This document shows positions 45,865-64,000 of a stretch of 64,000 nt of DNA, one piece after another. A program made the translations under genes and the position numbers. Numbering within the stretch: position 1 is the stretch's first letter; the number at the start of each line of letters is the position of its first letter. The notes below the pieces were generated by a model. The model saw only the letters and a list, made by a program, of their open reading frames with translations, ran no database searches and had not been told where the DNA came from. This stretch comes from Pseudomonas sp. 10S4 (GTDB lineage: Bacteria > Pseudomonadota > Gammaproteobacteria > Pseudomonadales > Pseudomonadaceae). The DNA lies in NCBI RefSeq assembly GCF_034344865.1, contig NZ_CP133774.1, forward strand, positions 5,022,001-5,086,000, read 5' to 3'.

Positions 45865-47104
45865 TCAGTAGGGATTACAGTGTTGCGCTACGGCTGTGGC
45901 TTGGTCGACGTACGGCCGCGCCGGTTCAAGGTTCCATTCGGGCTTGTTCCTGACAGGCTTGCCGTCGACGGTTGCTGCCAGATGACAAACCATTTGCCGG
46001 CGCAGTGACCCGCCATTGACGCTGTACGCCCTCCATTGCTGATCGTCTTTATGTTTGTTGTACAACTCGGCAAACATTCTGTCGGTCTGATCATCCTTGA
46101 TCGCGCGGCCGCAAGCGGTAGGCACCACCTGGAGCGACCAGGTGTTCGGTCCGAGTTTTGGATCGGGACGTTGTGCCCAGCTGCTTGATTCGATGTACTT
46201 GTCACAGAACTGTTGCGAGGGTGGAGGCGTGGTTTTGATGCACGAGAAGCTGGCCTTGCTCGTCGGGGTTCTTGGGAAATCAATCTTGACGATGTTACGG
46301 TCCTTTCCTGTCTTGTTTTTATAGTCCCGCTGATTGGCCAAGGCATCGTTCAAGCCACGTTGATCGCTGTAGAAAAAAGCCAGAATCGGTAGTTCGTCAT
46401 CTTTCGGGTTACCCAAGCGTAATTCTGTCTGGGTTTGAAACTCACGGGTGTTGATGACTTTCCGTGCCTCCATGAAGTTGCGAAAGGCGTCTACTCGATC
46501 CTTGCTGCTCATGGGATTGCGCATATTGAAGCCACATTGCAACTGGTCTTGCTTGATGTCGTTGTTGAACTTGGTGAAATGCGCAACCCAGGCATTCGCG
46601 CTAAGGATAGGGGGTGCCATGGCTTGGCATACGGCCTCTGTCTGGGCGGTGTTTTTATTGTTGCCACAGCCCCGATCGTCTCGAAAATCGGTCCAGGCGT
46701 CGTTGGGAAACGCACAATAAACATGCACCGGAGTCTCGGGATCGCGTACCAGATCTCTCGGAGTGATGATGTAGCCGTTCTGCGTACTCATGCCAGGATC
46801 TTCATAGCTGATGCCATCGGCACGCATAAAAGACGCGGCAAACGTACCCAGCTCTTTGGCTTTAGGGCTTGGATTCCAGACATCCCATTTCTGCCCCTTT
46901 GCCGGGTCGGCTCGGTGAGTGCCCCGGATCATCAATCCCGAACAGTCCGACGCCGGATCCTGCCTCGCAACTATCGACTGTGTTGTTGTACAACGTTTCA
47001 ACCCGTTTCAGCGTCTCCTCGCATGATTCGGCGTTGGCTAATGTCGTTTGCAAGAGCAACGGAAATATAAGTAATGACGTAATCCTGTTCAGACGTTTTT
47101 TCAT
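45865..47104 (-). CDS. Secreted halovibrin-like protein with C-terminal DUF2599-like domain (one frameshift)
   Basis: About 413 residues. Signal peptide MKKRLNRITSLLIFPLLLQT..., mature start ESCEETLKRVETLYNN. A slip near 46975 joins this to DCSGLMIRGTHRADP. The body has CSGLMIRGTH, VYCAFPNDAWTDFRDDRGCG, QCGFNMRN and LPILAFFYSDQRGLNDALAN, blocks I associate with proteins called halovibrin HvnA, secreted NAD-degrading enzymes of Vibrio fischeri. The C-terminus (YIESSSWAQR, TWSLQVVPTACGRA, WNLEPARP) matches the repeated domain of the neighbour. The name is tentative; NAD hydrolysis is inference. Confidence 0.6.
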
Positions 47105-47274
47105 GGGGCTACTTCCTTGTGGTTGGAACCGGTAGCCGGCGTGGGCGTCCATGCCGGTGCTACAGAAAACAGAAGGGTTCGTTGCACGCGCCAGCCTCAT
47201 TCGCCGACGACTTGCGCGACCTGCCGCGGACAACCGCAGCGCCCTCGGCAAGGGCGCCACAGTGCCCCGCAAAT

Positions 47275-48969: not shown

Positions 48970-49222
48970 TATCGACACTCCTTGTCGCACGAGATGATTT
49001 CCTTTAACGGATCAACGTAGTCAACTCAGACCTTCCGGTCAAATCAGTACTTGCTCACAGATCAACCTCCCGGTTCATAACCCTATCCATGACATTGGAC
49101 CGCACGATAGGTTTGGGGCGACCCCGTAGCGGCAGCGTGAATTTCACCCCTGTAAAGGATGTCCCCGGTTTCTACCCGAGCCGGCCCTTTCCCGCGTAGG
49201 TCTGGCGCCAGACAGGTGCTTT

Positions 49223-50278
49223 TCAGAGCTGCACCCGACGGAGTCTGCCGCTCAACGGGACGACGTTGTTGTCTGGCGTAGGCAGTGGCCGGCCCGCTAA
49301 TCCCATGCCTTCGCTCACCAGTACCGCATCCTTCAACACGCACAGGTTGGAAGGGGTATCCAGGTCGCGGGCGAGCACGGCCACTTGGGCTGTTTGCAGG
49401 TTGCAGCTCAACAGTCGACCCGTGAATCGGGTAAAGCCGCCATGGAGTACTTCGCCATTCCAGTCAGGCGGCAAGGGTTGCTGCAGACGGTTGCAGAGCT
49501 CCAGGACCAGCACGTTCCCCTGCGGACACAGCGCCAGTCCGGTAGGCAGTTGCAGACCGCGAATCAGGATGTCGATTTGCCCGCTGGCCGGCCAGACCCG
49601 AATCACTTGGCCTGCCTTGTCGGCAAAGTCGATGCCCTTGCGGGTCGGATCGCCTTGCAGTTCTCCGGAGAACAGGCTGATCAGCACGGCGTCTGTCGCC
49701 GGTTCGTACACCAGGGTCACGGGCACGGCTTCCTGGCCCAGCTCCAGTTCGGGTAATTGGACCAGTACGCGCTCGTTCTGGCCGGTGCTGAACTCCACCA
49801 ATTGATTGGTATCGGGTTTGACGGCCAGCCAGCTGCGCCGGGTCGGGTGGTAACACAGCGCATTCAGATTGCCACGGCTGTGAAACACCGGCTCGGGCGG
49901 GGTGTATTGCAGGTCCAGCAGTTTAGAGCCCTCGACATAATCGGTCTGGCTGACCAGACAGCGCCCGTCACCGCAGGCGATGTCCGACAGCCCCATGATT
50001 TCATCGCGCAGCATGCGGGCCTGCATGTTCATGGCGCGAAAACCTTGCGCGAGTATTTCGCGGGGCAGATAGGCGCCGGGGCTGGACGGATCCGGTCGCA
50101 GTCGACTGATACGGCCGCTGAAGGGCTGGTCTGGCAGGCCTGAGCCGGCTTCGGTCAGCAGCAGACTGCCATCGGCTTGCACACAGACGCCGCGGGGGTT
50201 CAGCAGGCCTTCAGCGATGATGGTGCTCGGGCACAGGGTTTCGCTGGGTCGCGCAGGGATATGAACGGGAATTTGCAT
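49223..50278 (-). CDS. ScyD/ScyE-like beta-propeller protein
   Basis: 351 residues without an obvious signal peptide. The start TIIAEGLLNPRGVCVQADGS and LLLTEAGSG match the ScyD/ScyE propeller pattern (VVAxGLxNPRGLxxxxDGxLYVxEAG), and PTGLALCPQGNVLVLELCNR repeats the blade motif later. In cyanobacteria ScyD and ScyE are encoded in the scytonemin (tryptophan-derived pigment) cluster. It follows the second VioB-like gene by 33 bases and closes the contiguous array that begins with the ebo genes. Function unproven. Confidence 0.65.
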   Translation of the reverse strand: MQIPVHIPARPSETLCPSTIIAEGLLNPRGVCVQADGSLLLTEAGSGLPDQPFSGRISRLRPDPSSPGAYLPREILAQGFRAMNMQARMLRDEIMGLSDIACGDGRCLVSQTDYVEGSKLLDLQYTPPEPVFHSRGNLNALCYHPTRRSWLAVKPDTNQLVEFSTGQNERVLVQLPELELGQEAVPVTLVYEPATDAVLISLFSGELQGDPTRKGIDFADKAGQVIRVWPASGQIDILIRGLQLPTGLALCPQGNVLVLELCNRLQQPLPPDWNGEVLHGGFTRFTGRLLSCNLQTAQVAVLARDLDTPSNLCVLKDAVLVSEGMGLAGRPLPTPDNNVVPLSGRLRRVQL

Positions 50279-50311
50279 AGGTCTCTCTCCATGGGCAAGG
50301 GGTGGGCGCGA

Positions 50312-52119
50312 CTACTGCGGCGGTTGCCACGGTTCACCCGTGAGATAGGCCCGCAGCAGTGCGCGCTGGCAGGGAGACATCGAGCGCACCACAGGCATGA
50401 ACAGCGTGGTGCCTTTGTAGGCATCCGAGGTTCGGGCGAGGATCGGATTCTTGGCGGCCATGATTGCGTCGGGCTGATTGAGCGGGATGTAACGAGACAT
50501 GGCGGGGAAGGCCAGGTAGTGAAAACGCAAGACGTTCGGATACATCAGCGGCCAGGTGATGGTGGTGCCCGCGGGGATGCCGAAGTCGGTCTGTGCGTAT
50601 TTGCGAAAGCTGGTGAAATAGCTGCCACTTGCAAGGCCGTTGACTGTGTAGGTCAGGGCGACGAAACCCGCCTGGGCGGCAGTACCCGGTTTTACCGTGA
50701 CGGGGAAACTGACGGCGAGCTGACCGGTGTTTACGGTCAGTGAGGCAGGGAAGTCGAGGAAGTCCCAGTTTTGCGGTTGATCGTATAAAGCAGGGGGGTT
50801 GCCTTCAGGTCGATTTCGGTAGCACTGTCGACCGGAACGCCCAGATGCCTGACCTGCAGGGTGATCGACAGGCCATTGGGGTGGTCCTCCAGATAAACGT
50901 TGCGCTGATCGGCATACACCCGATAGATCGATTCGGTTGCGTGAAGCGTCGACTTGTAGACCGTGTCGGGCGCGTTGATGGCCAGTGGGTTTTTCTGCAC
51001 CGCTAGCTGCTGGCTGGAACTCAGGGGCAGGTCGACGATGCCGCCATACACGTAGTAGTTGAACAAAGGGCTGCTGGTCGGGTCGAGGGTGGTCAGGGTG
51101 GTAGCGCCTGCAGTAATGGTGACGGGACCGTAATTAGCGTTGGGTCCGATGGGGCTAGTGATGTCGTCCCTGACGACCCTGAAGTTTTGTTTCGGGATGA
51201 CGTTCACCATGTCGATGCTCAGGAGGCCACTGTCGCCCAGATCGGCATAGCCGGTGCTATTCGTGTACTTGTTGACCAGTTGCCGGCCCGGCTGGCAGTT
51301 CATCGGTTCGTCGGCGAAGGCTGGGGCCAGTGTGCCGATGACCCGGCCGATGCTCGGGTTGGGGGTGTTTCTGCCAGCGGCATAATCGGCATCCAGTTGT
51401 TCGGTGGTCATCTCGGGGCACATTTCGAACATGACGAAGCGCAGGACGATCCCCGTTGCCCCCGGTGCCTGAATGATCGACTGCAGGCCACTGCTGTTCT
51501 GGTTCCAGCTCACGATGCTGCTCAGGGGAAAGGTCAGCTGAAACGTACCGCTGAGGCGGAAAGAACCCGGCGCATCCATATCCTCTGGCTCCAGAATCCT
51601 CTTTTTGACATCCAGGCTGCTGCAGACCGTGTTGGCGCGAATCAGCAACTGGATGTTGTCGCTCCCGCCAATCTGCAGGCCGCCGACGAATATCTGGGTG
51701 GTGTTTGTGGCGGTGGGGTCCAGGTCCACCATCATCGGGCCGGAAACAGGCCCCTGTCCGGTTACCGGGTCCACTGAACCGAGCAGATAGACAGGCTGGC
51801 CGACCTGATCGCCCGTCGTGCTGATGTTGCCCGGATTCCCCTGGGAACTGATCAAGGCGCTCTGCATATCAACGACATGCTGCCCGTAGTGATTCCAGCC
51901 GCCAGCGGTGTAGTAGTCGCCGTTTGGGGCATTGATCATGTCGTTCAGTTGATCGTCGGTGTAAGACTGGGCGCCCGGCGCCAGGGTCGAGGTGGTCAGG
52001 TCGAAGAGCGGCCAGCCGTCAGGCTCTCCTTGAGGGATAGTCGGGGAGTTGTTCGGCAAGCTGACATCCGTGCGGATGCCGCCCCAGAAATTCAGTCGTG
52101 GGCCGTTCAGGATGCTCAT
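50312..52119 (-). CDS. VioB/RebD N-terminal-domain-like protein 2 (one frameshift)
   Basis: About 602 residues. It opens MSILNGPRLNFWGGIRTDVS, the same opening style as VioB (MSILDFPRIHFRGWARVNAP, from memory) and as its paralogue at 54424-56790. A slip at about 50795 (poly-C) hides the last part: NWDFLDFPASLTVNTGQLAV, then FPAMSRYIPLNQPDAI and TLFMPVVRSMSPCQRALL, which aligns with the end of VioB's N-terminal half (YPFMSDKVFSLAD, YYMPSTRELSAPKARL). The ferritin-like catalytic half of VioB/RebD is absent. No signal peptide. It starts three bases after the cytochrome-like gene. Confidence 0.6.
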
Positions 52120-52122
52120 GAT

Positions 52123-53414
52123 TTATTCCTCGTCCTTGATGGTTTTGCCGATAGGCGCATTGGCGAATTTGAACAGGTAGGAGTAGTCGGACTTGTAGGG
52201 GCTTTTGACCGGTGTCGCCATGGAGTGGCAGTTCATGCAACTGCTGTTGGGCTGGATATAGCTCTCCATGGTCACGTTGGCCGAGAGCGAAGGCGTCGGC
52301 TGGCCCAGTGGATTGCCAGGGTTGTCCGGCATCAGCGGGCGTTGGGTGGTGATGAGCTGGTAATACTTCAACGCGCTTCTTTGCAGCCCCGGATCGGAGC
52401 GGTAATTGGCGTTGACCCCATTGGTGACTTCGGCAATCGGGGTGACCCGGTTCAGCGGGTTCGGGGTCTGGAACGTGGTGCCGGGTTTGGGTACGCAGAC
52501 CAAATGCGCGTCTTGAGTCTGCCAATCGCAGGGCGACTGGTTGAGGGTGACGGCGGGGGCCGCGGCGTTGAAGTAGGAATAGGCCGTGCCGGATGCCGGT
52601 TGGTCGACCCACTGGCCGTTCACCAGCGCCTTGGGCGGAACGTTATCGACCTGCTCGAATGTCGACCAGATCCACTGTGGATAACCGTTCGCCTTGGTGA
52701 TGATGTGCAGGCCCACCAGACCCAGGTACGCCTCGGTGACACCGATGCGCTGGCCTTGGTCGTTGAACTTGGCCACGCGCGCGAGCATGGTTAGGTAGTG
52801 GCTGGCGTTGTCAGCGGTCGTGAGGACGCGCCAGCTCGATTTGACCTCAATGACGCCATAGGGAAACTGGATGTTGTTGGCTTTGGAAACGACATCGGCG
52901 TTATAAAAACTGTTGCCGACGATGTAGTTGTAAGAGGTCTCGTTGGCCGAGATGTCGTAGTAGGTCGGGTTACGGGCCTGGTCGATCAGCCAGCCGCCGA
53001 CGGCCTGATCGACGGCATTCACCTGTGAGCTGTTCTTCAGCGCGGCGATGTTGATGATCCCCAGGCTTTTTGCGGCCTGCGGGCTATTCCACGGGCCAGG
53101 GTTGGTTGCTCCCGGCAGAAAGATTTCCTCTACGGTTTTGTAGGTCTGCCAGACGGTGTAGCCGGCATCCCCGGGCTGTTTGCTGCAGTCGGGATTACCT
53201 CGCTGCCCGTCCTGTGCCGGCCAGCTCAAGGCGATGAACATCTGCCAGCTGTATTGATCGAACAGATCCTGACTGGCGGTGGCGGCCGGCGCGGTGCTGG
53301 GGGCTGGCAATTCAGGTTGGTGGCCTGCGTCGACGGCATTGCCTGTTCCCGGGCCAGTGCCGGCAGACTGGCCAGGCCCAATAACATCACGGAGAGACGG
53401 AGTGTGGTTTTCAT
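52123..53414 (-). CDS. Secreted one-haem c-type cytochrome-like protein 2 (one frameshift)
   Basis: About 430 residues. Signal peptide MKTTLRLSVMLLGLASLPALA, with AAGGA before the ATG at 53414. A slip near 53300 (poly-C after LNCQ) joins the body, which begins SQDLFDQYSWQMFIALSWPA. Near the C-terminus SCMNCHSMA is a CxxCH haem-attachment site; only one is present. Shared with the paralogue at 56801-57940: an AWEL/SSWRV strand, GLHIITKANGYPQWIWSTFE and the C-terminal CxxCH. The rest does not resemble a classical cytochrome c, so the body may be a novel domain. It pairs with VioB-like protein 2. Confidence 0.7.
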
Positions 53415-53433
53415 GGCGATCCTTCGTCATTGG

Positions 53434-54356
53434 TCAGGGTTTGCGTTGCATGAGCTTGTTCCATTGCGCCTTGTGGCCGTTGCTCTGTGACGCCGGTGGC
53501 TCAAACAATTGGCAGGGCGGCGGATTCGACGGGCACATGGCGGCTACCTGTGCCCAGGTCTGGGCCGGGTCCGGTTTGGCGATGCGGAAGTCGGTGTAGT
53601 TCTGGCTGACGATGGGCGCATTGGCGACGCTGGTGTCCCCGGAAAAAAGAACGACTGGGGATGCCGGTACGGCGGCTGTCCCGACGGTTTTTTGTAAAAG
53701 GCATAGCCGAACAGGATCGGACCTTGCGGTGATTCGAGGTCCAGGGCGTAGGCCTGCACGCTGGCGTCGAGGTTTTTGCTGCGTTCGGCGCTGTAGGGCA
53801 GGTGCTCGATGAAGTCTTGCCGAGGCGGATGATTCATCGGTGAAAACATGCAGCAGGCCGGCATGTCTTTGGGGCGGTCTTGCGGGTACGTCAGGAAATA
53901 CGCCTTGTTGCCAAGGGATACGAACGAGCAGGTGTAGTTGTTGTTCTTGATCGGGAAGATCGGCAGACAGTACTTCTCGTAGTGCTCCATCATGGCGCCG
54001 AAGCCGTCGCCATCCGGCGGGATATAGGTCGTGTCGTAGTAGCTGGTCCCGCGGGAGACGGTGTAGTCCGCCGGGGTCAGAGTGGCAGGTGGGTTGCTGT
54101 ACGGCGGCTGATTTTTTTCGTAGTTGTGCATCACTCGGTACATGGTCCAGTTGCTGATCCAGAACGCCGGAAAGAACGGATCGGAAGGGTCGCCCGGTGC
54201 GCGTTTGGCGATGCAGTTGCCGTTCTGCTCATCGCACCCCTGGGTGTTGTGCACTCCCATGGTGAAGTAGATGGCGCCGCTGTCCTCCTGGGCGAAAAGG
54301 GCTGGGCTGAGCAGCAGGGTCAGCAGCAACAGTCGGTTCAAGATGCTGGCTTTCAT
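53434..54356 (-). CDS. Secreted cysteine-rich protein, unknown function (one frameshift)
   Basis: About 307 residues. Signal peptide MKASILNRLLLLTLLLSPALFA. The mature protein has GVHNTQGCDEQNGNCIAKRA, KYCLPIFPIKNNNYTCSFVS and ACCMFSPMNHPPRQ, rich in Cys, Tyr and Pro. A slip in a T run at about 53645 restores SGDTSVANAPIVSQNYTDFR, CPSNPPPCQLFEPPASQSNG and the end KAQWNKLMQRKP. That C-terminal ...HKAQWNKLM resembles the end of the cytochrome-like protein 1 (KRAQWQR). It sits between the two cytochrome/VioB-like pairs. No family recognised. Confidence 0.6.
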
Positions 54357-54423
54357 ATGACACTCCTGTGAAATTCCGGGTGACAGGCTCGTCACCCGGT
54401 GGTCCTGCTTGAAGCGTTGTTGT

Positions 54424-56790
54424 TTAGCCTTGTTTGTAATCGCTCATGCTGAGGGGGAAGGGCGGGTAATTGCGTTTCACCAAGGACTGCGCCCAGAGCT
54501 CCAGTACTGCGCGTCGGCTTTGCGGCATATCTCGGGTAATGGGCATCGCCAGGGTGCTTTCTTCCTGATATTCCTTGCTGATCAGCACAATGAGTTGGTC
54601 GACGGCACCCTCTATCCGGTGCAGCGAATTGAGCGGCATATATTTGCTCATGATCGGGTACATGTAATAGAAGGGCTGCAGGATGCGTGGGTAGATGAAG
54701 GTCTCCCAGATCAAGGTGCTGGCATCCGGGCGCTGATAAATGCGGTTCCACTCATCGACAAAATCCTTCTGCATTTGCGGCTCCAGCGGCAGGATGCGCA
54801 TCGGTGCGAGGAAGTCGGTATAAGCCTGCGAGAGCGGGAAACTGAAGGGGATGACGGGTGTCTGCTCTCCTTCATGCACGAAGAAACGCAAAGTCGGAAA
54901 GCCCGGGGCCTTTGCCTTGACGGTCAGTCGGGCGATGCCATTGGCGTCGGTTTGAATCTGCGTCAGGCAGTAGTGCACGGCGCTGTTCTGGGAGTCCTGC
55001 AGAACACCTTCCATACGGATTGGATTGTCGAACGACAGGCAGGGGCTCAGGGCGACCGAACCGGGTGTCGGCAGGTATTGCAGATAGCTCACCGGCACCT
55101 CGGTACCGGATGGCTCGGCGGCCCGCGTCGCCATGAGCCTACGGCCAGTGCCCTCCGTCACTTGGCTGGGTATCGCAGGGGTATCGCTAAATTGCGGCAG
55201 GTTGGATCTGTTCTTGCCGCGATTTTCCGGATCGTCGTAGAACAACGTAAAGTCGGCCGGGTTGCTGAACGCCAGATAGTAATCGGTCGTGCACATCATG
55301 TAGGCGTTGCCATACTCCGCCACCGATAGCACGGTGCCGGCCGGTGCCGGCAGACCGTCATATTGCACCATGATCTGCAGCGTCTTGCTGTCGCCGACGT
55401 CGATGAAACTTGCGCTCTCGACCACTTCTGCAGTCCACATCTGCTGGGCTGCGGCTAGCACCGGGTTTGTTCCCGCTAGTTGCAGCTCCAATGATCCGGT
55501 TTGCAGCTTTTTCTGTGCGTCGGCACTGAGAGGCAGATCAAGGATGCCGGAGCGTTTATCGAAAGCCGCCTGCTCATAGTCCTCAAAGCCAATACTCGCC
55601 AACGGAGTGAATTGCCCGTCTTGGCGTATCCCGAGTTGGTAGCTGCCGGCATCGAATTTTTCTGCCACCGGGATGTCAGCGGCCGGGTCGATCGGATAGC
55701 TCGGGAAGGTGTTGCCCAGATCCAGCGATAAGGTATCGCCATGGGCCTGTGCCGAGATTACGCCCAGTGTCGCCTGTTTGGGGGCGTCCCCGGTTTTTTG
55801 TAGAGTCACCGCGTCGCAAGGGATCAGACGCCGCCCGGCCGGCGCGGTGGGAAACTCGTCGTCAAACCACAGGCCCAGGGTGCCTACGGTGCTGCTGTAG
55901 GCGGGGTTGAAGAAAATGCTGGCGACGTTGTCCAGCCCTTTCTGATACATCTCCTGGACTTTGGCCAGGGCCGACGGGGTGGTGGAACGGCTGTTGAAGG
56001 GCGGGTAGTTGTTGAAAATGCCGTTTTTGTCGTAGCAGGTCAGGTAGGTGGAAAACCGGAACATCAGGCCTTTGGCTTTTTGTTGTTCCATCTGTTCCTG
56101 GAGATTTTTCAGCAGGGCCGAATTGCCGATCGCCCAGGCCAGATTTTCTTTCGGGAAGCAGGTTTGCCACGTGGTGGTCACATAGATCAGGCCACCCAGG
56201 TTTGCCCATTTGAAGTTCAGGAAGCGATCGAGCATCCGATATTGACGCTTGAGCGTCAGGCCGCATTGGTCGTCGCCCAACACCAGTTTGTCGAAGTACA
56301 ACGCGGTGAAGGTGTTCTGCCAGGGGCTGACGTCGACAAAGCGGGCCGCGGTGGGGCTTGTGCTGCCAAAGGGATTGCCGAGCAAATTGTAGCTCTGGTT
56401 AATCAGGGCATCCTGGTCAACGTACCCACCGTTCGGGAGTTCGCCGCCGATGATGACGGACTGGGTCTGGTTGTAGCTGACGGTGCCACAGGCGTTGTCA
56501 CCAAACAGGTTCCATTCTCCGGGGATCATTATCGGAGGATTCTGTGAGACGTTGCCCGGCACCTGCGTGACGTAATTGGGCGCCTCGTGTAACACCCGAG
56601 GGGCGATCGTCCAGGGCATCAGTGTGCTGGCGGCATTTTCTGGTGTGATGTTGTAGTAATCAAGAAACCGCCAGTTCATCCGCATTTTTACCGCATCGTA
56701 GAGCGGGTACATATCGTTGTTGTTGGCCGTCGGCGGGTTCCAGAACATATGGCCGTTGAGGTAGATGCGAGGGAAATTCAATACGCTCAT
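54424..56790 (-). CDS. VioB/RebD N-terminal-domain-like protein 1
   Basis: 788 residues, intact. Start MSVLNFPRIYLNGHMFWNPP followed by TANNNDMYPLYDA closely resembles VioB (DFPRIHFRGWARVNAPTANR, from memory). Middle: TVGTLGLWFDDEFPTAPAGR and RLIPCD correspond to VioB's VGVVGLWRRGELASYPAGR, and SGILDLPLSADAQKKL to its GIVDLPLL segment. End: PFYYMYPIMSKYMPLNSLHR and MPITRDMPQSRRAVLELW. The ferritin-like domain that follows in VioB, RebD and StaD is missing. AAGGAG lies eight bases before the ATG, ten bases after the stop of cytochrome-like protein 1. No export signal. Confidence 0.7.
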   Translation of the reverse strand: MSVLNFPRIYLNGHMFWNPPTANNNDMYPLYDAVKMRMNWRFLDYYNITPENAASTLMPWTIAPRVLHEAPNYVTQVPGNVSQNPPIMIPGEWNLFGDNACGTVSYNQTQSVIIGGELPNGGYVDQDALINQSYNLLGNPFGSTSPTAARFVDVSPWQNTFTALYFDKLVLGDDQCGLTLKRQYRMLDRFLNFKWANLGGLIYVTTTWQTCFPKENLAWAIGNSALLKNLQEQMEQQKAKGLMFRFSTYLTCYDKNGIFNNYPPFNSRSTTPSALAKVQEMYQKGLDNVASIFFNPAYSSTVGTLGLWFDDEFPTAPAGRRLIPCDAVTLQKTGDAPKQATLGVISAQAHGDTLSLDLGNTFPSYPIDPAADIPVAEKFDAGSYQLGIRQDGQFTPLASIGFEDYEQAAFDKRSGILDLPLSADAQKKLQTGSLELQLAGTNPVLAAAQQMWTAEVVESASFIDVGDSKTLQIMVQYDGLPAPAGTVLSVAEYGNAYMMCTTDYYLAFSNPADFTLFYDDPENRGKNRSNLPQFSDTPAIPSQVTEGTGRRLMATRAAEPSGTEVPVSYLQYLPTPGSVALSPCLSFDNPIRMEGVLQDSQNSAVHYCLTQIQTDANGIARLTVKAKAPGFPTLRFFVHEGEQTPVIPFSFPLSQAYTDFLAPMRILPLEPQMQKDFVDEWNRIYQRPDASTLIWETFIYPRILQPFYYMYPIMSKYMPLNSLHRIEGAVDQLIVLISKEYQEESTLAMPITRDMPQSRRAVLELWAQSLVKRNYPPFPLSMSDYKQG

Positions 56791-56800
56791 GTCATGCTCC

Positions 56801-57940
56801 TTAGCGTTGCCACTGGGCGCGCTTCAGCGACCAGACAAAGTCCAGTTTGTTGTAACCGACAAAATCGGATGCCGGCAGCGGGGCAGTTGGGTAAACAAGG
56901 CCGCCCTGTTCTTTCAGAGCGAAATTGAAGTAGCCGTTCTTTTTTGAGTACGCGGCCGTACCGTGGCAGGCGAAACAGGAGGACTGGCTCTGAAAGGCTG
57001 ACTCGAGCTGGGAGTTGGCGAGCAATGTCGGTGTTGTCTGGGATTGGGTGCCGATCAGTTCGTACTGCGCCAGGGCAGGGTATCTGGCCTGGAAGTCGGT
57101 GTTCACCGGTTGGGCAGCCGGTGTCGGTCCGGTGCTGTTGGTCATCGGGGTGGACGGGATCGCATTGGTCACGGTGTACTTACTGTTGTTGCGATTTTCG
57201 AAGGTGGTCCAGACCCAGTCGGGGTTTAGCTTGTTGATGACGTGCAAGCCACTCAGCGCGGCATAGCCGACCAGATATTCATTACCCTGCTGATAATAGG
57301 CCTGGGCGATGTAGTAACCATCGCTTGCCAGTTGCTTCTGGTAGCTCGGATTGTTGCCGATCCACAGCCAGGAGGCTTTCAACTCCCAGGCGCTGGAGGG
57401 GAATGTCAGGTCGCTGGTCAGGGCGGCTTGGCCATTCATGTTGTAGACCTGTTTCTGCACGATGTAATCGAACGTGTCTTGGCCCATCAACAGTTGGAAA
57501 CGCACCGGCTGGCCTTTTTCTGCGTCCGGCACCGCGCCGCCCATCTCCAGGATCAGACCGTCCACCTGTTGCGTGGCGTTCAGGTTGTGGAACGTGCGAT
57601 TGACGTCCATGCCCTGATCTTTGGCCTGTTTAAGCACGTCGGATGGAAGCGGGGCGCTCTTGCCGTATGGCAGGGGCGCGGCGCCGTTGCTCAGGTAGAC
57701 CTGATCCGAGGGCTTCATGGTTTCCCACACCCGATCGGGACTGTTCGCGGCGGCAGGCTGGTTCAGGCAGACGAACCAGTTCCAGGTCAAGGTTTCGGGA
57801 CCCTGGGTAAATTCGGCCCGGGTCTTGTCGATGTTTCCTCCAAACTGCATGAAATTGTTGCAGTCGAAGGTGTTGGTGTTCTCAGCCTGAGCCAATCCGG
57901 CCAGTGCACTGAGAACGGTTATAGAAATGGCTCGCCGCAT
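56801..57940 (-). CDS. Secreted one-haem c-type cytochrome-like protein 1
   Basis: 379 residues. Signal peptide MRRAISITVLSALAGLAQA, mature ENTNTFDCNNFMQFGG. One haem site, SSCFACHGTA, near residue 325. Other conserved pieces shared with protein 2: SSAWELKASWLWIG, GYAALSGLHVINKLNPDWVW and TTFENRNN. It starts inside the 3' end of the eboF-like gene (overlap 22 bases) with its AAGGAG there, so it is translated from the ebo message. Periplasmic; an electron-transfer role is inferred from the haem site only. Confidence 0.72.
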   Translation of the reverse strand: MRRAISITVLSALAGLAQAENTNTFDCNNFMQFGGNIDKTRAEFTQGPETLTWNWFVCLNQPAAANSPDRVWETMKPSDQVYLSNGAAPLPYGKSAPLPSDVLKQAKDQGMDVNRTFHNLNATQQVDGLILEMGGAVPDAEKGQPVRFQLLMGQDTFDYIVQKQVYNMNGQAALTSDLTFPSSAWELKASWLWIGNNPSYQKQLASDGYYIAQAYYQQGNEYLVGYAALSGLHVINKLNPDWVWTTFENRNNSKYTVTNAIPSTPMTNSTGPTPAAQPVNTDFQARYPALAQYELIGTQSQTTPTLLANSQLESAFQSQSSCFACHGTAAYSKKNGYFNFALKEQGGLVYPTAPLPASDFVGYNKLDFVWSLKRAQWQR

Positions 57941-59364
57941 GGAAGCTCCTTGGCATTGGCCAGGTCGGTGTGTGGGTGCCCCAGGAAATGCTGCAGGAGC
58001 AGTTGTTTCACTGCCGTGGCCGCAAGGTGTTGCGGCAACGGCAGATCACAATTGGTGATGAGCAGCGGGCCGGTCTGCGCGCTACCGGGCAGGCGGCCAT
58101 GACTGCCGCGGACCAGTCCGGTGTCCAGCGGGATCAGGTCCATGTAGTAGCGAAAGCCGAGCTTTTTCTGCAGCAGGCGGCGCGCCACTTTCAATTTGGG
58201 GAAACGAATGGCCGGGTCGATGAACAGCTCCAGCGGGTCGTAGCCGGGCTTGCGATGGATGTCCACGGTGCGGGCAAAGTCGGGGGCCTTGCGATCATCG
58301 AACCAGTAGTAGTAATCGAACCAGTAACCCGCTGCGGCCACGGTCACCAACTCGCCACTGCGAGGATGATCCAGCTGCCAGGCCCGTTGCTCGGCCTTAT
58401 CCAGCACCTGCTCGATGCCGGGCTGACACTGCAACAGCGCTTTGACGCGGGGGATGTCTTGAGCCTGCTTCACGTAGATATGCGCGATCTGATGATCGGC
58501 AACGGCAAAGGCTGCGCTGGCGCCGGGGTCGAGCAATTCCCAGCTCAACGATTGGCGCACCTCTAACAAACCTTCCGAGCGCAACACGCGGTTGATCGAA
58601 ACAGATTGCTGGACGGCTTCGATCCCGTATTCGGACAGCAGCATCACCGCTGCGCCTTGCTCCTGGGCGAAGGTCAGCAGGCGACCGACTTCACTGTCGA
58701 TAGCCCGTACCTCGTCAGCAATCGACGGATGATCGGGGCCCAGACGCTGCAGGCTGTAGTCGAGATGGGGCAGGTAGATCAACTGCAGGTCAGGGCGATC
58801 GAGCTGGAATTCGGCGATGGCGCAATCGACGATCCAGCGGCTCGACTTAATGCCGGCCGCCGGGCCCCAAAAACTCGGAAAAGGGAACTCGCCAATCTGC
58901 CGCTCGATACGCTCGCGCAACGATGCCGGTGACGAATACAGACCGAACATTTTGCGGCCATCGGCCGGGTAGTGAGGGCGCGGGGTGATGGCGGCATCCA
59001 CGTCCGCGTACATGTTGTACCACCAGAACAACTGGCTGCAGCGAAACCCGGGTAGCTCACGCTTGAGTTCCTGCCAGACCTTTTCACCCTGGATCAGTGC
59101 GTTGGGTTGCAGCCAGAAGCGTACTTCGGCCTGATCGCGAAAATACCAGCCATTGCCCACGATGCCGTGCTCCGACGGCGGTAGGCCGGTAAGGATCGAG
59201 GCCTGCACCGTCGACGTGACGGCCGGAAACACCGGTTGCAGGCTGGCCATTTTTGCCGTTTTCAACAGGGCATTGATGTGAGGCGTCGCGGCTCCCAGCA
59301 GCGCTGGCGTCAGCCCGACCACGTTGATCAGCAGCAGCGGTTGACGCGGATGATCAGAGGGCAT
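57919..59364 (-). CDS. eboF: EboF-like nucleotide pyrophosphatase/phosphodiesterase family protein
   Basis: 481 residues of the alkaline phosphatase superfamily. Metal and nucleophile positions: LLINVVGLTPALLG near the start, then FPAVTSTVQASILTGLPPSEHGIVGNGW split over residues 50-80 (Thr nucleophile in the TST segment, HGIVGNGW as in NPPs), YLPHLDYSLQRLGPDHP and, late, DHQIAHIYV. These are the NPP/PglZ-type metal ligands. The ATG at 59364 overlaps the eboE-like stop by eleven bases. It corresponds to the sixth gene of ebo clusters. Substrate unknown. Confidence 0.82.
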   Translation of the reverse strand: MPSDHPRQPLLLINVVGLTPALLGAATPHINALLKTAKMASLQPVFPAVTSTVQASILTGLPPSEHGIVGNGWYFRDQAEVRFWLQPNALIQGEKVWQELKRELPGFRCSQLFWWYNMYADVDAAITPRPHYPADGRKMFGLYSSPASLRERIERQIGEFPFPSFWGPAAGIKSSRWIVDCAIAEFQLDRPDLQLIYLPHLDYSLQRLGPDHPSIADEVRAIDSEVGRLLTFAQEQGAAVMLLSEYGIEAVQQSVSINRVLRSEGLLEVRQSLSWELLDPGASAAFAVADHQIAHIYVKQAQDIPRVKALLQCQPGIEQVLDKAEQRAWQLDHPRSGELVTVAAAGYWFDYYYWFDDRKAPDFARTVDIHRKPGYDPLELFIDPAIRFPKLKVARRLLQKKLGFRYYMDLIPLDTGLVRGSHGRLPGSAQTGPLLITNCDLPLPQHLAATAVKQLLLQHFLGHPHTDLANAKELPCGEPFL

Positions 59365-60586
59365 CGGCGTACGCCTCCTGCGCTTGTGGTTGCAGCAATT
59401 GCCGCTGCCGCAGTTGCTCTTCGACCCAGTGCAATTCTGCGGCGATCCCCTGGAGTTGGGCGTACTCGGTAGTGGGCCGCAACTGGACGGGAAGGACGCC
59501 CCAACTGTAGGTTTCCACTTCCAGCACCGGACGAAAATCCCCATGGCTGGCGAGAAAATCGAAGGTCTGCGACAGGGCGATCTGACTGCCGCTGAGCTCG
59601 GGCAACAGCAAGTGTTCGCTGAACAGTGGGATGTGGAAATGAATCCTCAGTTCGGGGTATTGCCCCGGGTGCTTTGCGCAATCGTCGAGGGCGGCGGGAA
59701 GGTCCGCCCAGGCCATTAACCGGTCCTGTGCATCGCGAGCTTTCACTTGATGCAGGTAGGTGGTTTCGGCAAATTCGCCCAAGGTCTTGAGAACGTGTTC
59801 ACGCCGGTTGTCGTCTTGAGAGGGCAGGCGACAAATCAATGCGTTGGACAGCTGAATCTTGCCGATGGGCACCCGTGCCTGACGCAGCCTGTCCAGCGAC
59901 TGATAGCAGTCTTCGAACATCACAGCCTGGTGGCAGACATCAAAACACAGCGCTAAATACTCATAGTGCGGGTCAGTGGTTTGCCAGCGGCGGAAGAAGG
60001 CGATGGCCTGGTCAGTGTTTTCCAGCACGCAGTCCGGCTCCATCTCCAGGCAGAACACGATTTTCTTGCCAGTCTTCAGATGCAGCCTGGCCAGTGAGGC
60101 GGTGAGTTGGCGCAGTTGATATTCGGCATGTTGCTGTAACGTCGGGTTCCAACTGGCGGCATAGCCCAGCGGCACGCTGGAAATCACTCCCTGATGGCAG
60201 TCTGGCGGCAAGGCCAGCGCGAGGATTTGCGCCAGATTCAGGCTGTACGCCAACCGTTTTGGTTCGGCCCAACTGGGCAGGTAGACCTCGGCTTTCACCG
60301 CGCCATCATGAAATTGGCCGTAGGGAAAACCGTTAAGCGAGGTCAGACGTAGCCCACTGCGTTGCAGCAGACTCAGGAACTCCGAACGCGCCGATGTCTG
60401 CTGTAATTCGGCCGCGGCGAGGGCACTGATCCACAGTCCACTGTCCTGCTCGTTCAGCCTGCGTAGCGTGCGCACGCCCTGAAAGTGCTGTTCGATGGAG
60501 GACCGTAGCCCGGCCAGGTCACGGGTCGGATGCACGTTGCTGCAATAACCGACCTGCGCGGCAGCCCACCCCGTGCCGGCATTCAT
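59354..60586 (-). CDS. eboE: EboE-like TIM-barrel protein
   Basis: 410 residues related to xylose-isomerase-like TIM barrels. Typical blocks: VGYCSNVHPTRDLAGLRSSI at the start, LTSLNGFPYGQFHDGAVKAE, FCLEMEPDCVLENTDQAIAF and CFDVCHQAVMFED, whose Glu, Asp and His residues would bind a metal. Described in ebo clusters as metabolite traffic protein EboE. I use the ATG at 60586; a GTG at 60631 is possible but has no better ribosome site. It is 79 bases after the eboB-like start. Confidence 0.85.
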   Translation of the reverse strand: MNAGTGWAAAQVGYCSNVHPTRDLAGLRSSIEQHFQGVRTLRRLNEQDSGLWISALAAAELQQTSARSEFLSLLQRSGLRLTSLNGFPYGQFHDGAVKAEVYLPSWAEPKRLAYSLNLAQILALALPPDCHQGVISSVPLGYAASWNPTLQQHAEYQLRQLTASLARLHLKTGKKIVFCLEMEPDCVLENTDQAIAFFRRWQTTDPHYEYLALCFDVCHQAVMFEDCYQSLDRLRQARVPIGKIQLSNALICRLPSQDDNRREHVLKTLGEFAETTYLHQVKARDAQDRLMAWADLPAALDDCAKHPGQYPELRIHFHIPLFSEHLLLPELSGSQIALSQTFDFLASHGDFRPVLEVETYSWGVLPVQLRPTTEYAQLQGIAAELHWVEEQLRQRQLLQPQAQEAYADAL

Positions 60587-60665
60587 TTGATCACCGGTTC
60601 CTGCCCCCGGAGGGCGGAGTTTTCCTGCCACTGCCGACGCTGATCGATGGGTAGCGGGGTACTGA

Positions 60666-61466
60666 TCAGGGCTTTATCCATTTGGCCGCTTTGGGCAAAA
60701 AGTCCACCGGGTTGTGGAACAGCACCTGTTCGACCTGAGCCTCGCTGAAGCCGGCCGCCAACATGGCCTGGCCCGTTTTTGGCACCTTGAGCGGGTCGCT
60801 GATGCCCCAGTCGGCAGCGCTGTTGACCACCATTTTTTCGGTGCCGTACTGCTGGAGCAGGGCCACCATGCGCTGTTCCGACATTTTGGTGTTGGGGTAG
60901 ATGGAGTGGCCGCGCCAGCAGTCGCTGTCCAGCACCAGAGGCAGCGTCAGTTCATTGAGGTGGTCGATGATCACCAGATGCTCGGCAATCCCCACTTCGC
61001 GAATCACTGCCAGGGTGCGTTTGGTGCCGCCGATCTTGTCGCGGTGCGGGGTGTGCACCAGCACCGGCAAATTGAATTGTTTGGCCAGCTCCAGTTGAGC
61101 GGCGAGAAAGCGATCCTCCTCGGGCGTGATGTCGTCGTAGCCGATTTCGCCGACCGCCACGACGCCGTCTTTCACCAGATAGCGCGGCAGAATCTCCAGC
61201 ACCTCATTGGCCACCGACAAGTCATTGGCCTCCTTGGGGTTGAGGCCGATGGTGCAGAAGTGATGGATGCCGAACATGCTGGCGCGAAAGCGCTCCCAGC
61301 CCAACAGCGTGTCGAAGTAATCGATAAAACTGCCGACACTGGTCCTGGCCTGGCCCTGCCAGAAGGCCGGCTCGATAACCCCGGTAATGCCGGCGGCTGC
61401 CATGTTCTGGTAGTCATCGGTGGTGCGGCTGACCATATGAATGTGCGGGTCGAAGTACTTGAGCAT
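60666..61466 (-). CDS. eboB: EboB-like TatD family metal-dependent hydrolase
   Basis: 266 residues. Metal ligands of the amidohydrolase/TatD fold: FDPHIHMVSR at the N-terminus (HxH), VVAVGEIGYDDITPEE, LPVLVHTPHRDKIGG, LVIIDHLNELT and MVVNSAADWGISDPL. The last block and AFWQGQARTSVGSFIDYF are typical of ebo-cluster TatD proteins rather than DNA-repair TatD. It precedes eboE in transcription order and follows eboA by 36 bases. Confidence 0.88.
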   Translation of the reverse strand: MLKYFDPHIHMVSRTTDDYQNMAAAGITGVIEPAFWQGQARTSVGSFIDYFDTLLGWERFRASMFGIHHFCTIGLNPKEANDLSVANEVLEILPRYLVKDGVVAVGEIGYDDITPEEDRFLAAQLELAKQFNLPVLVHTPHRDKIGGTKRTLAVIREVGIAEHLVIIDHLNELTLPLVLDSDCWRGHSIYPNTKMSEQRMVALLQQYGTEKMVVNSAADWGISDPLKVPKTGQAMLAAGFSEAQVEQVLFHNPVDFLPKAAKWIKP

Positions 61467-61502
61467 GGTGAATCCTCGTCAAAGGAAGGGAGCCATTGAG
61501 CA

Positions 61503-62276
61503 TTAGTTCGGTGAGGTGCCGGCCAAGCGGTCACGCCATTCCGGCGGCAAGCGTTGCTGCTGACTCAGGCCTGCCAGGCGCTGGTGTTGCGCCGGGCTGA
61601 GCAGGTTGAAGGCAATCGCCAGGGGCAACCCGGCGGACACCGTTCGTTCGGCCGCGAGCTGTTCGTCCAGCAGGTCGAGGGCCAACTGATTAAGGGGGAC
61701 GCTGAGTCGTTGCGTCAGGCCGATCAGACGTCGTACGTCGAGCCCCATGCCCAACGCCTTCAGTACCAGTTGATGGAAGGCCCGTTCGGGGTAATGACGT
61801 GACGGGTAGTGGGTGTCGAGGGCGAGGGCGGCAAACACCTGGCTGTTACTGGTACGCCCGGCCTGCAACGCCAGCTCCACGCACAGCCCACGGCTATCGA
61901 GCCAGTCGAGGGCCTTCAAGGTGGCGATCTTTTCCTGATCGTCGCCCCACAGAAACAACTGGCGCAGCAGGGGCAGTTGCCCGTCGGCGGGCTGTTGCTC
62001 AAGGACCTGCGCCAGCAACAACGCGCGCGCCAGTTGGATGTGGCTCCAGCCGGCATTGTTGGGCAGTGCATGCTCCTTGAGGTTGCGCTTGCACTGACTG
62101 CTCAAGAGCGCCGCGGTGTTGGCGTTCGGGTGTTGGGTAAGCCGCTCCTGTGCCTGGCGCCACCACTGCTGCTCGGCTTCATCGAGCTGTTGGGTCAAGG
62201 CCTGGCGTTGTTCGGCGAGGCGGTCGTGGCGCATTTCGAGGGCCGTTGATGACGGCGCAGTGACGTCCATTTTCAT
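61503..62276 (-). CDS. eboA: EboA-like protein
   Basis: 257 residues, mostly helical, no membrane segment. QEKIATLKALDWLDSRGLCV and NSQVFAALALDTHYPSRHYPERAFHQLV (split over residues 155-185) are characteristic of EboA, whose biochemical role is unknown. The ATG at 62276 overlaps the stop of eboC (ATGA), fixing the start. The long upstream open frame is a shadow inside eboC. Confidence 0.85.
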   Translation of the reverse strand: MKMDVTAPSSTALEMRHDRLAEQRQALTQQLDEAEQQWWRQAQERLTQHPNANTAALLSSQCKRNLKEHALPNNAGWSHIQLARALLLAQVLEQQPADGQLPLLRQLFLWGDDQEKIATLKALDWLDSRGLCVELALQAGRTSNSQVFAALALDTHYPSRHYPERAFHQLVLKALGMGLDVRRLIGLTQRLSVPLNQLALDLLDEQLAAERTVSAGLPLAIAFNLLSPAQHQRLAGLSQQQRLPPEWRDRLAGTSPN

Positions 62277-63163
62277 GTCGGTTTGATCCAGCGCTGAAAG
62301 TGTGGGAGCAGGAAAAACACCAGGACACATAACAGGCTGCCCAAAGGCTGATTGGCCACGGCCATCACCAGGGCATCGAACAGGGGCAGGGCTGCCAGGC
62401 CGGCACCGATAAAGGCCCGAACCTTGCGATGTTGCGGGTTGGCCAGGTTGTGCCAGTAGTGCCAGCCCAGCCAGCCAAGCCATATCAGCAGCACCGGCCA
62501 AAACCAGAGGTTGTCGGAATAGATCGCCAGGGCCAGCGGACTCAGCATCAGGATCAGCGGGAGGCGGCTGAGCAACTGGTTGTTGTGTTCATTGCGGGCG
62601 AGGTAGGTCAGGCCGCTGATGTAGACGCCCAGCAAAATCGCGCAGAGCCAGATCGGTTCCGGAGGCACCGCCAGGCTGGCCGCCGCCGTGAGGTAGAGCG
62701 TCGAGCGGCAAGCGCCCATCAACCAGACGCTGTGGGCGTACTTCTTGTGCAGCAGGTTGTAGCCGAAGATGCAGCCCGCCAGCAGGGTGACGCTGCCCAG
62801 CAGCCAATGCGGCTGATCGATCAGTCGGCTCAGACCCAGCACCGAGGCTGCGGCCAGCATCAGCAACAACACAGTGGCCAGGCGCACTTGTTGTCGACTG
62901 ACCAGGCCCAGGGTGATGGGCCGAGGGTTATGGTGTTGTTGGTCCCAGTCGGCATCCAGTAGATCGTTCAACAACATGCCGGCCAGATACAGCAGCGACA
63001 GTGTGGCCAGCAGCAGGATCCACACCAACGACGACGGCGGCGCCAGGGCCCCGGCACTGCTGGCCAGCAGCGCGGCGGCCAGGGTGTTGGTCCATACGGT
63101 GGGCAGGTTGGACACCCGGCCGAGGGTCATCCAGGTCTTCAGATTCAGCGGTGTCTGGCTCAT
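62273..63163 (-). CDS. eboC: EboC-like UbiA family prenyltransferase
   Basis: 296-residue membrane protein with about eight helices. The prenyl-diphosphate site is AGMLLNDLLDADWDQQHHNP (NDxxDxxxD), followed by RPITLGLVSRQQVR. TYLARNEHNN lies in the C-terminal half. UbiA enzymes attach prenyl chains to aromatic rings; the aromatic acceptor in ebo systems is unknown. Start and stop overlap the neighbours (ATGA at both ends), so translation is coupled from eboD to eboA. Confidence 0.9.
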   Translation of the reverse strand: MSQTPLNLKTWMTLGRVSNLPTVWTNTLAAALLASSAGALAPPSSLVWILLLATLSLLYLAGMLLNDLLDADWDQQHHNPRPITLGLVSRQQVRLATVLLLMLAAASVLGLSRLIDQPHWLLGSVTLLAGCIFGYNLLHKKYAHSVWLMGACRSTLYLTAAASLAVPPEPIWLCAILLGVYISGLTYLARNEHNNQLLSRLPLILMLSPLALAIYSDNLWFWPVLLIWLGWLGWHYWHNLANPQHRKVRAFIGAGLAALPLFDALVMAVANQPLGSLLCVLVFFLLPHFQRWIKPT

Positions 63164-64000
63164 TGCGCGAAGCCCTCGTTCAGGGTGAGCGCCGGGCCGC
63201 TGCGGGTGGACAGTCGCAACAGCGCTTGCTCCATCCGCGCGTCATCGATTTCATGCAGGTCGACTGACTCGCCGATCCGGCTAAGCATGGGGATGGAGAG
63301 TTGCCCGCCCAAGTGCTGGCGGAATTCCTCCAGCCCGAGCAACACCTGTGAGCGCCCCTGTGCATCTTTCAAGGTCAGTTCCGGCGGGCACAGGTTGAAA
63401 CCGAGCTTGAGTAAAAGGTTCAGAACCCGTTCAGTGTCGGCGTCGCTCAATAGCCCCAACGCATTGGCATAAAGTCCATCGAGGGCCATGCCCACTGCCA
63501 CGGCTTCGCCATGGCGCAGCCGGTGGTGACTGAGGTTTTCCAGTTTGTGCGCGGCCCAATGCCCGTAATCCAGTGGCCGTCCGTTACCGCGTTCGAAGGG
63601 GTCGCCGGCACCGGTGATGTGTTCCAGGTGCAGTTCGGCGCAGCGGCGAATGGCATAGCGGCTGGCCGGGTGATCGAAGTGGGCGAGGGCGTCGGCCTGT
63701 TGCTCCATCCATTGGAAGAATGACTGGTCCTTGATCAGCGCCACCTTGACCGCCTCGGCCAGCCCGGCGATCTGGTCGCGTCGGGTGAGGCTGGTCAGCA
63801 GCTGGAAGTCATTGATCACCGCAGTGGCGGGGTAGAAGGCCCCCAACAGGTTCTTCTGGCCGAAGGCATTGATGCCGTTTTTCACCCCGATGCCAGCGTC
63901 GTTCTGGGCCAGCACCGTGCTCGGGACGCGGATCAGGCGAATGCCACGGTGGAAGGTGGCGCAGGCGTAACCCACCGAGTCCAGCACTGCGCCACCTCCC
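63160..64000 (-). CDS. eboD: EboD-like 3-dehydroquinate synthase family enzyme (5' end outside window)
   Basis: About 280 C-terminal residues; the start lies beyond the right edge. GGGAVLDSVGYACATFHRGI and RLIRVPSTVLAQNDAGIGVK are the NAD/substrate region of sugar-phosphate cyclases; metal ligands appear in LAEAVKVALIKD, RHGEAVAVGMALDGL and DYGHWAAHKLE. It is of the EboD type (AQNDAGIGVKNGINAFGQKN) rather than AroB. In ebo clusters it would cyclise a sugar phosphate. First visible gene of the long minus-strand array. Confidence 0.87.
   Translation of the reverse strand, partial: GGGAVLDSVGYACATFHRGIRLIRVPSTVLAQNDAGIGVKNGINAFGQKNLLGAFYPATAVINDFQLLTSLTRRDQIAGLAEAVKVALIKDQSFFQWMEQQADALAHFDHPASRYAIRRCAELHLEHITGAGDPFERGNGRPLDYGHWAAHKLENLSHHRLRHGEAVAVGMALDGLYANALGLLSDADTERVLNLLLKLGFNLCPPELTLKDAQGRSQVLLGLEEFRQHLGGQLSIPMLSRIGESVDLHEIDDARMEQALLRLSTRSGPALTLNEGFAQ

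What the first reader, a model, noticed from the sequence alone, without database searches (positions are those of the whole stretch)
49223..64000. Candidate undescribed system: ebo genes fused in one array with two cytochrome/VioB-like pairs and a ScyD/E-like propeller
From 64.0 to 49.2 kb eleven complete genes plus the eboD fragment run on one strand with overlaps or short gaps: eboD-C-A-B-E-F, haem protein 1, VioB-like 1, a secreted Cys-rich protein, haem protein 2, VioB-like 2, ScyD/E-like propeller. Seen: motifs, coupling (eboF/haem protein overlap 22 bases), signal peptides and CxxCH sites. Known: ebo genes are needed in cyanobacteria to bring the scytonemin monomer to the periplasm; ScyD/ScyE are in that cluster; VioB/RebD/StaD dimerise tryptophan-derived imines; a Pseudomonas cluster with ebo genes has been linked to repelling nematodes. 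Inference: this array makes, prenylates or exports an aromatic metabolite and oxidises or couples it in the periplasm with haem proteins. No VioA, RebO or ScyA/B homologue is in the window, so the precursor route is open.
Basis: partly seen in the sequence, partly recalled or inferred. Interest (0 to 1): 0.92.

Follow-up and report, generated by a model that had tools for sequence, protein, structure and literature searches.

The report
EDB-type ebo cluster with split VioB
A Pseudomonas carries a known kind of gene cluster, linked in a relative to repelling nematode worms with indole compounds, and its poorly understood half appears to pair a piece of the violacein enzyme VioB with an exported haem protein, next to an export kit that contains a likely lipid-flipping domain.

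Summary
The array is real and conserved. It is an ebo cluster of the kind in the EDB ("edible") cluster of P. fluorescens NZI7, so it is not undescribed as a whole. All 31 other EboE-positive genomes among 249 Pseudomonas carry haem protein 1, VioB-like 1 and the propeller behind ebo; haem protein 1 over 600 bits occurs in those 32 genomes plus one fragmented draft. Not found described in the papers seen: (1) VioB-like 1 matches the N-terminal part of VioB and lacks its ferritin-like domain PF12902; in Mycetohabitans and Gloeothece a VioB-N protein sits near ebo genes with a separate PF12902 protein, a haem protein, or both, so the haem protein seems to take the ferritin-like partner's place. 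(2) The haem proteins look exported; the model of haem 1 resembles cytochrome P460/c'-beta. (3) EboD is fused to a VTT/DedA domain, a family that includes undecaprenyl-phosphate flippases. (4) The leader before eboD holds two conserved Rsm-type hairpins. (5) The Cys-rich protein belongs to a large unnamed family. In this genome the Cys-rich, haem 2 and VioB-like 2 frames are each broken. The propeller is only distantly ScyD/E-like and lacks a signal peptide. Chemistry and direct partnership are inferred.

The parts
63160..64000 (-). eboD, 3' part in the window; whole gene about 622 codons at L005:161-2032, with N-terminal VTT/DedA domain and 3-dehydroquinate-synthase-like C-terminus
   Evidence: Pfam PF09335 37.0 bits (cut-off 33.9), PF01761 120 bits; NF004852 640.6 bits; fusion in 30 of 32 ebo-positive Pseudomonas genomes
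62273..63163 (-). eboC, UbiA-like prenyltransferase
   Evidence: NF035940 85.2 bits, below cut-off 250; PF01040 45.3 bits
61503..62276 (-). eboA (start placed by eye; the raw ORF to 62501 starts too early)
   Evidence: NF035938 EboA domain 132.8 bits, cut-off 50
60666..61466 (-). eboB, TatD-like metal hydrolase; frame differs from P. gingeri at its extreme C-terminus
   Evidence: PF01026 46.7 bits
59354..60586 (-). eboE, TIM-barrel metabolite traffic protein (start placed by eye)
   Evidence: NF035939 401 bits, cut-off 250
57919..59364 (-). eboF, type I phosphodiesterase/nucleotide pyrophosphatase (start placed by eye)
   Evidence: PF01663 207.6 bits
56801..57940 (-). haem protein 1: signal-peptide-like N-terminus, single C-terminal CFACH; P460/c'-beta-like fold predicted
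54424..56790 (-). VioB-like 1 (VioB-N): homologous to the N-terminal part of VioB, no PF12902
   Evidence: TIGR04492 positions 1-163 and 262-448; alignment A3; no Pfam hit
53437..54356 (-). secreted Cys-rich protein, frame interrupted once in this genome
   Evidence: family alignment A4
52123..53414 (-). haem protein 2: signal-peptide start lies in another frame than the main frame, interrupted once in this genome; CMNCH
50312..52119 (-). VioB-like 2 (VioB-N), C-terminal part in another frame, interrupted once in this genome
   Evidence: relatives have open frames of about 603 codons
49223..50278 (-). beta-propeller, distantly ScyD/ScyE-like, no signal peptide seen
   Evidence: NF033206 56.7 bits, cut-off 80; 0 of 31 relatives with hydrophobic N-terminus

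Best explanation
This is an EDB-type ebo cluster for making and exporting an oxidised, probably tryptophan-derived, indole metabolite. Proposed working: (1) the cytoplasm supplies a tryptophan-derived intermediate such as indole-3-pyruvate or its imine (no dedicated tryptophan oxidase lies in the array); (2) VioB-N proteins, the VioB part without its ferritin-like domain, bind or process it; (3) the Ebo proteins move it across the inner membrane, perhaps on a prenylated cyclitol carrier made by EboD and EboC, with the DedA-type domain fused to EboD as a candidate flipping step; (4) exported single-haem proteins with a P460/c'-beta-like fold, aided by the Cys-rich protein, oxidise or couple it in the periplasm. 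Haem protein and VioB-N are encoded as a pair, stand where other genomes have VioB-N with a ferritin-like protein, and probably were duplicated as a pair (no tree was made). Gac/Rsm control acts on the leader before eboD. Shown by computation: gene content, order, co-occurrence, domain relations, partner exchange between genomes, fusion, leader hairpins. Inferred: substrate, direction of transport, catalysis, binding of Rsm proteins, physical contact of the pair.
Confidence: 0.6

Rival explanations
1. The haem proteins are electron carriers or acceptors for an oxidoreductase, not catalysts, and VioB-N proteins are structural beta proteins; the cluster decorates the envelope rather than making an indole.
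Against: No GMC gene in the array; VioB-like 1 shares sequence with VioB; VioB-N lacks a signal peptide; EDB expression in E. coli gave indoles (review).
Confidence: 0.2
2. VioB-N works alone in the cytoplasm on the tryptophan-derived substrate and the haem proteins act later on the exported product, as ScyE is proposed to do in scytonemin; the pairs are linked by pathway, not by contact. (This overlaps with the best explanation and differs in the partnership.)
For: Opposite export signals; scytonemin precedent of cytoplasmic steps, ebo transfer, then periplasmic oxidation (PMC6282210).
Against: Adjacency and order in 58 of 58 loci, kept in Telmatospirillum with rearranged ebo, and two paralogous pairs in the same order suggest a closer tie.
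Confidence: 0.35
3. The pairs are unrelated to VioB chemistry; the VioB match reflects a shared beta-rich scaffold only.
For: VioB scores of 21 to 60 bits are far below the family cut-off of 1250.
Against: Several members match different VioB segments; 26 columns are invariant in an alignment of nine members that includes a PF12902-fused one; split VioB-N/PF12902 genes stand with ebo.
Confidence: 0.1

Closest known systems
EDB ('edible') cluster of Pseudomonas fluorescens NZI7
   Same: Pseudomonas cluster with a full ebo set plus non-ebo ORFs with signal peptides (PMC6282210, passages read); reported under GacS control (PMC4406715, passage read), fitting the Rsm-type leader here
   Different: No sequence difference could be tested, since NZI7 was not found under that name; the Burlinson 2013 and Zhou 2022 papers are not held. 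In this genome the second cassette is broken
ebo + scy clusters of cyanobacteria (scytonemin)
   Same: ebo genes beside a ScyD/E-like propeller and exported proteins
   Different: No ScyA/B/C seen in the array; propeller without signal peptide and under the family cut-off; the passages read on scytonemin name no VioB or cytochrome
VioB / RebD / StaD (haem enzymes that couple two indole-3-pyruvate imines)
   Same: VioB-N proteins align with parts of the first about 590 positions of VioB
   Different: No ferritin-like PF12902 domain; a separate exported c-type haem protein stands beside it instead
Cytochrome P460 / cytochrome c'-beta
   Same: Single C-terminal CxxCH and predicted beta fold of haem protein 1
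   Different: About twice the length or more, no sequence-profile match; 'gene cluster' does not occur in the review PMC11928373
DedA/VTT family (PF09335)
   Same: N-terminal domain of EboD scores over the Pfam cut-off
   Different: Fused to a dehydroquinate-synthase-like enzyme; which DedA subfamily it belongs to was not tested; the main text of the survey PMC10127716 does not contain the word dehydroquinate

Membership tests
ebo cluster | eboA, B, C, D, E, F present together | tested here: met
   EboE 401 bits over 250, EboA domain 132.8 over 50; EboC 85.2 is under its own cut-off of 250
EDB cluster of P. fluorescens NZI7 | full ebo set plus non-ebo ORFs with signal peptides in Pseudomonas | tested here: met
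   definition from PMC6282210
EDB cluster of P. fluorescens NZI7 | sequence orthology to the NZI7 genes | not testable with these tools
   NZI7 not named in the scan; papers not held
EDB cluster of P. fluorescens NZI7 | GacS control | tested here: inconclusive
   two Rsm-type hairpins before eboD in 26 and 27 of 30 loci; no expression data
VioB/RebD/StaD | N-terminal VioB region | tested here: met
   VioB-like 1: TIGR04492 7e-11, positions 1-163 and 262-448, alignment A3; VioB-like 2 not by profile
VioB/RebD/StaD | ferritin-like domain PF12902 | tested here: not met
   no hit at E<=1 for either VioB-like frame, while L166 and the separate proteins of L221, L222, L223 hit at 7.8e-51 to 2.5e-78
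VioB/RebD/StaD | VioB family cut-off 1250 bits | tested here: not met
   40.7 bits
ScyD/ScyE family | NF033206 cut-off 80 bits | tested here: not met
   56.7 bits; five relatives 50.0 to 67.8
ScyD/ScyE family | Sec signal peptide, periplasmic (ScyE) | tested here: not met
   0 of 31 relatives (simple hydrophobicity test)
Cytochrome P460/c'-beta superfamily | single c-type CxxCH with beta-sheet fold | tested here: inconclusive
DedA/VTT | PF09335 over cut-off | tested here: met
   37.0 bits over 33.9
DedA/VTT | lipid-carrier flipping activity | not testable with these tools
   reported for other DedA proteins (PMC9876793 passages; PMC10127716 passages)

The most novel reading that the evidence does not exclude
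A bipartite VioB-type system: the VioB scaffold part has exchanged its ferritin-like part for an exported P460-type haem-c enzyme, so oxidative coupling of a tryptophan imine is split across or moved over the inner membrane, and the ebo machine supplies the crossing through an EboD-fused DedA-type flippase. This would give both the missing transporter of the ebo system and a new class of bisindole-type oxidase, present from Pseudomonas to cyanobacteria.
Probability: 0.25. Interest if true: 0.85.

Novelty: new variant of a known kind. Interest (0 to 1): 0.62.

Why it matters
The 2018 paper left open how ebo proteins move a metabolite over the inner membrane (PMC6282210, section read), and no answer was seen in the papers listed by my searches; the EboD-VTT fusion names a testable candidate. 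The exchange of partners around VioB-N suggests that VioB/RebD/StaD are fusions of two modules that also exist apart, which gives a handle on which part does what. The same gene set describes the non-ebo half of what is probably the nematode-repellent cluster type and shows its spread and its probable post-transcriptional control.

Tried and rejected
Rejected: VioB-like proteins as full VioB homologues (no PF12902). Anti-phage defence: no PADLOC match for six proteins. Sequence relatives with solved structures: none credible for VioB-like 1 (three alanine racemase rows at E 0.025 to 0.03) and none for haem 1. Foldseek with VioB-like 1 gave five matches at E<=0.001, but the TM-scores by query length are at most 0.10 in the 50 rows shown; the Ig-like rows are generic. 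The VioB profile in 274 class genomes rang in 5, none over the cut-off. The Cys-rich family in 274 class genomes: only the own genome, so plasmid records were used instead: 4 records, of which three were viewed. VioB-like 2 against plasmids: 1 record, Gloeothece. haem 1 against plasmids: 38 records, of which three were viewed. The eboF N-terminus also passed the crude hydrophobicity test in 11 of 31, which shows that the test is loose. Old decay of the broken cassette: third-codon-position changes dominate in all three genes, as in the intact core genes, so the breaks are recent or assembly errors; this could not be decided. Literature on a link of these topics: among the papers listed (7 of 7; 18 of 18; 15 of 38; 9 of 9; 10 of 149; 4 of 4) I saw none that joins VioB, P460 or DedA with ebo; most were seen as listings only, and the library lacks most subscription journals, so this is weak evidence of novelty. 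PMC5133447 does not hold the words Pseudomonas, EDB, VioB, cytochrome or scyE in its main text.

Full report
What is there. The window lies at 5,022,001-5,086,000 of a 7.27-Mb Pseudomonas genome. From the right edge to 49.2 kb one minus-strand array reads eboD-C-A-B-E-F, haem protein 1, VioB-like 1, a secreted Cys-rich protein, haem protein 2, VioB-like 2 and a beta-propeller. haem 1 and haem 2 are paralogues (25.9% identity, E 5e-16), as are VioB-like 1 and 2 (22%, E 1e-6). Three genes of the second cassette, Cys-rich, haem 2 and VioB-like 2, each have their reading frame interrupted once; their missing ends are visible in other frames, and P. gingeri and others have intact copies. eboB differs in frame from P. 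gingeri at its extreme C-terminus. Substitutions against P. gingeri fall mostly on third codon positions in these genes as in the core genes.

Conservation. EboE occurs in 32 of 249 Pseudomonas genomes. The regions of all 31 others hold haem 1, VioB-like 1 and propeller behind eboF; the second cassette is optional (haem 2 and VioB-like 2 in 23 of 31, Cys-rich in 22 of 31 at 70% coverage or more). In one of the 31 (L046) eboC is only a short frame. A haem-1 profile over 600 bits rings in 33 of the same number of genomes, 249: those 32 and one fragmented draft. A named scan gave 58 loci, many of them from the same species as the unnamed set: in 58 of 58 VioB-like 1 is the next match after haem 1; 51 of 58 match all nine core profiles (fragments counted), and 40 of those 51 the cassette as well. 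They include Rheinheimera, Azomonas, 'Pantoea' Cy-639 and 'Paucimonas' MAG records (the last two labels may be wrong; not tested), Xanthobacteraceae contigs (4.1 to 7.7 kb, no ebo in view) and Telmatospirillum, where the pair stands before a rearranged ebo set without propeller. By contrast, 0 of 14 further EboE-positive genomes in a class-wide sample of 369 have the pair in the stretch fetched around EboE; two of them carry VioB-N matches on other contigs (74 and 51 bits). Phylum-wide the haem profile rings in 6 of 398 genomes, four of them distantly.

VioB in two parts. VioB-like 1 matches VioB profile positions 1-163 and 262-448 and relatives match 1-290, 485-591 and 505-573, while PF12902, the ferritin-like domain of the VioB class (that association is recalled; L166 shows it with the VioB profile in one chain), is absent. 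VioB-like 2 does not match the VioB profile. L166 encodes VioB-N plus PF12902 in one chain; L163 has them as neighbours on opposite strands. Twenty-six columns are invariant over nine diverse members, among them M749, P750 and R753 of VioB-like 1. The Cys-rich protein led further: its family has 742 hits at E<=0.001 (120 listed), with 52-81% identity of 19 chosen members to the first row, and no Pfam domain in the 120 rows. In plasmid records it stands with VioB-N and a separate PF12902 protein in Mycetohabitans (with eboD, E, C, A, B, F), in Azospirillum (no ebo in view) and in the cyanobacterium Gloeothece, which also has a VioB-N/haem pair (303 and 212 bits) and eboB and eboD. So VioB-N goes either with the ferritin-like domain, fused or split, or with the haem protein. 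The PF12902-linked VioB-N proteins match our profiles weakly (14 to 36 bits).

Export. EboD here starts with a VTT domain. The fusion is in 30 of 32 ebo-positive Pseudomonas genomes and in 49 of the 54 loci L067-L120 of the named scan; of the five others one has no eboD in view, one is cut by a contig end and three have eboD without the domain. It is absent from Telmatospirillum, Gloeothece and Mycetohabitans and from the 12 class-wide ebo loci with an eboD match, one of them cut by a contig end. DedA proteins are named as candidate or actual undecaprenyl-phosphate translocases (PMC9876793 passages; PMC10127716 passages). Klicki et al. proposed a prenylated cyclitol carrier for ebo (PMC6282210, section read). 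The fusion fits that idea and supplies a candidate flipping step; this is inference.

Control. The leader of eboD, outside the window, holds two A-N-GGA motifs, one at the ribosome-binding site. In 30 loci (two with unfused eboD were left out of 32) they fall into hairpin loops in 26 and 27, against shuffled-flank means of 3.6 (maximum 7) and 7.2 (maximum 13) in 50 shuffles. The loci are related, so these counts are not independent. That such sites bind RsmA/E is recalled knowledge. EDB was reported under GacS control (PMC4406715 passage).

What is known. Klicki et al. state that EDB contains a full ebo cluster and that some other EDB ORFs have signal peptides. A review reports that EDB expressed in E. 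coli gave indoles, two of which repel C. elegans moderately (PMC9655573 passages). The primary papers are not held. RebD/StaD/VioB are described as haem-containing enzymes that couple two imines (PMC10851217, PMC10847564 passages). EboC homologues from marine bacteria preferentially farnesylated quinoline derivatives (PMC9235831 abstract and section 5).

Verdict. The system is a known kind (EDB-type ebo cluster); its non-ebo half is described here as a split-VioB variant with a haem-c partner. Function is inferred.

Noticed in passing
window 45865-48990 (-): Two DUF2599 proteins lie left of the array; the first also looks interrupted, with a signal-peptide-like start in another frame.
   Followed up: no
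L005:4939-15932 (-), right of the window: A second biosynthetic-looking cluster stands about 3 kb upstream of eboD: ketosynthase-like protein, double acyl carrier protein, FAD monooxygenase, AMP-ligase, reductase, as judged by eye from the translations.
   Followed up: no
L207:7346-11429 and 7 similar loci: A third branch of the haem family sits with a small subunit and a GMC oxidoreductase, also in a genome of the same species (G216) that has no EboE match.
   Followed up: partly
L224, L225: Bradyrhizobium and Rhizobium plasmids carry distant haem-family genes near genes annotated as PKS or NRPS.
   Followed up: no
L222:537-3598: Mycetohabitans has a gene annotated LodA/GoxA-type oxidase and one annotated tryptophan 7-halogenase about 3.4 kb before its VioB-N gene, a possible imine source (annotation only).
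   Followed up: no
P0231: A haem-family protein is filed under the nematode Diploscapter pachys, most likely bacterial contamination.
   Followed up: no
L087: The closest haem 1 relative of the named scan (95% in its best segment, Pseudomonas sp. TH31) has broken frames in most genes of the cluster, which looks like a poor assembly.
   Followed up: no
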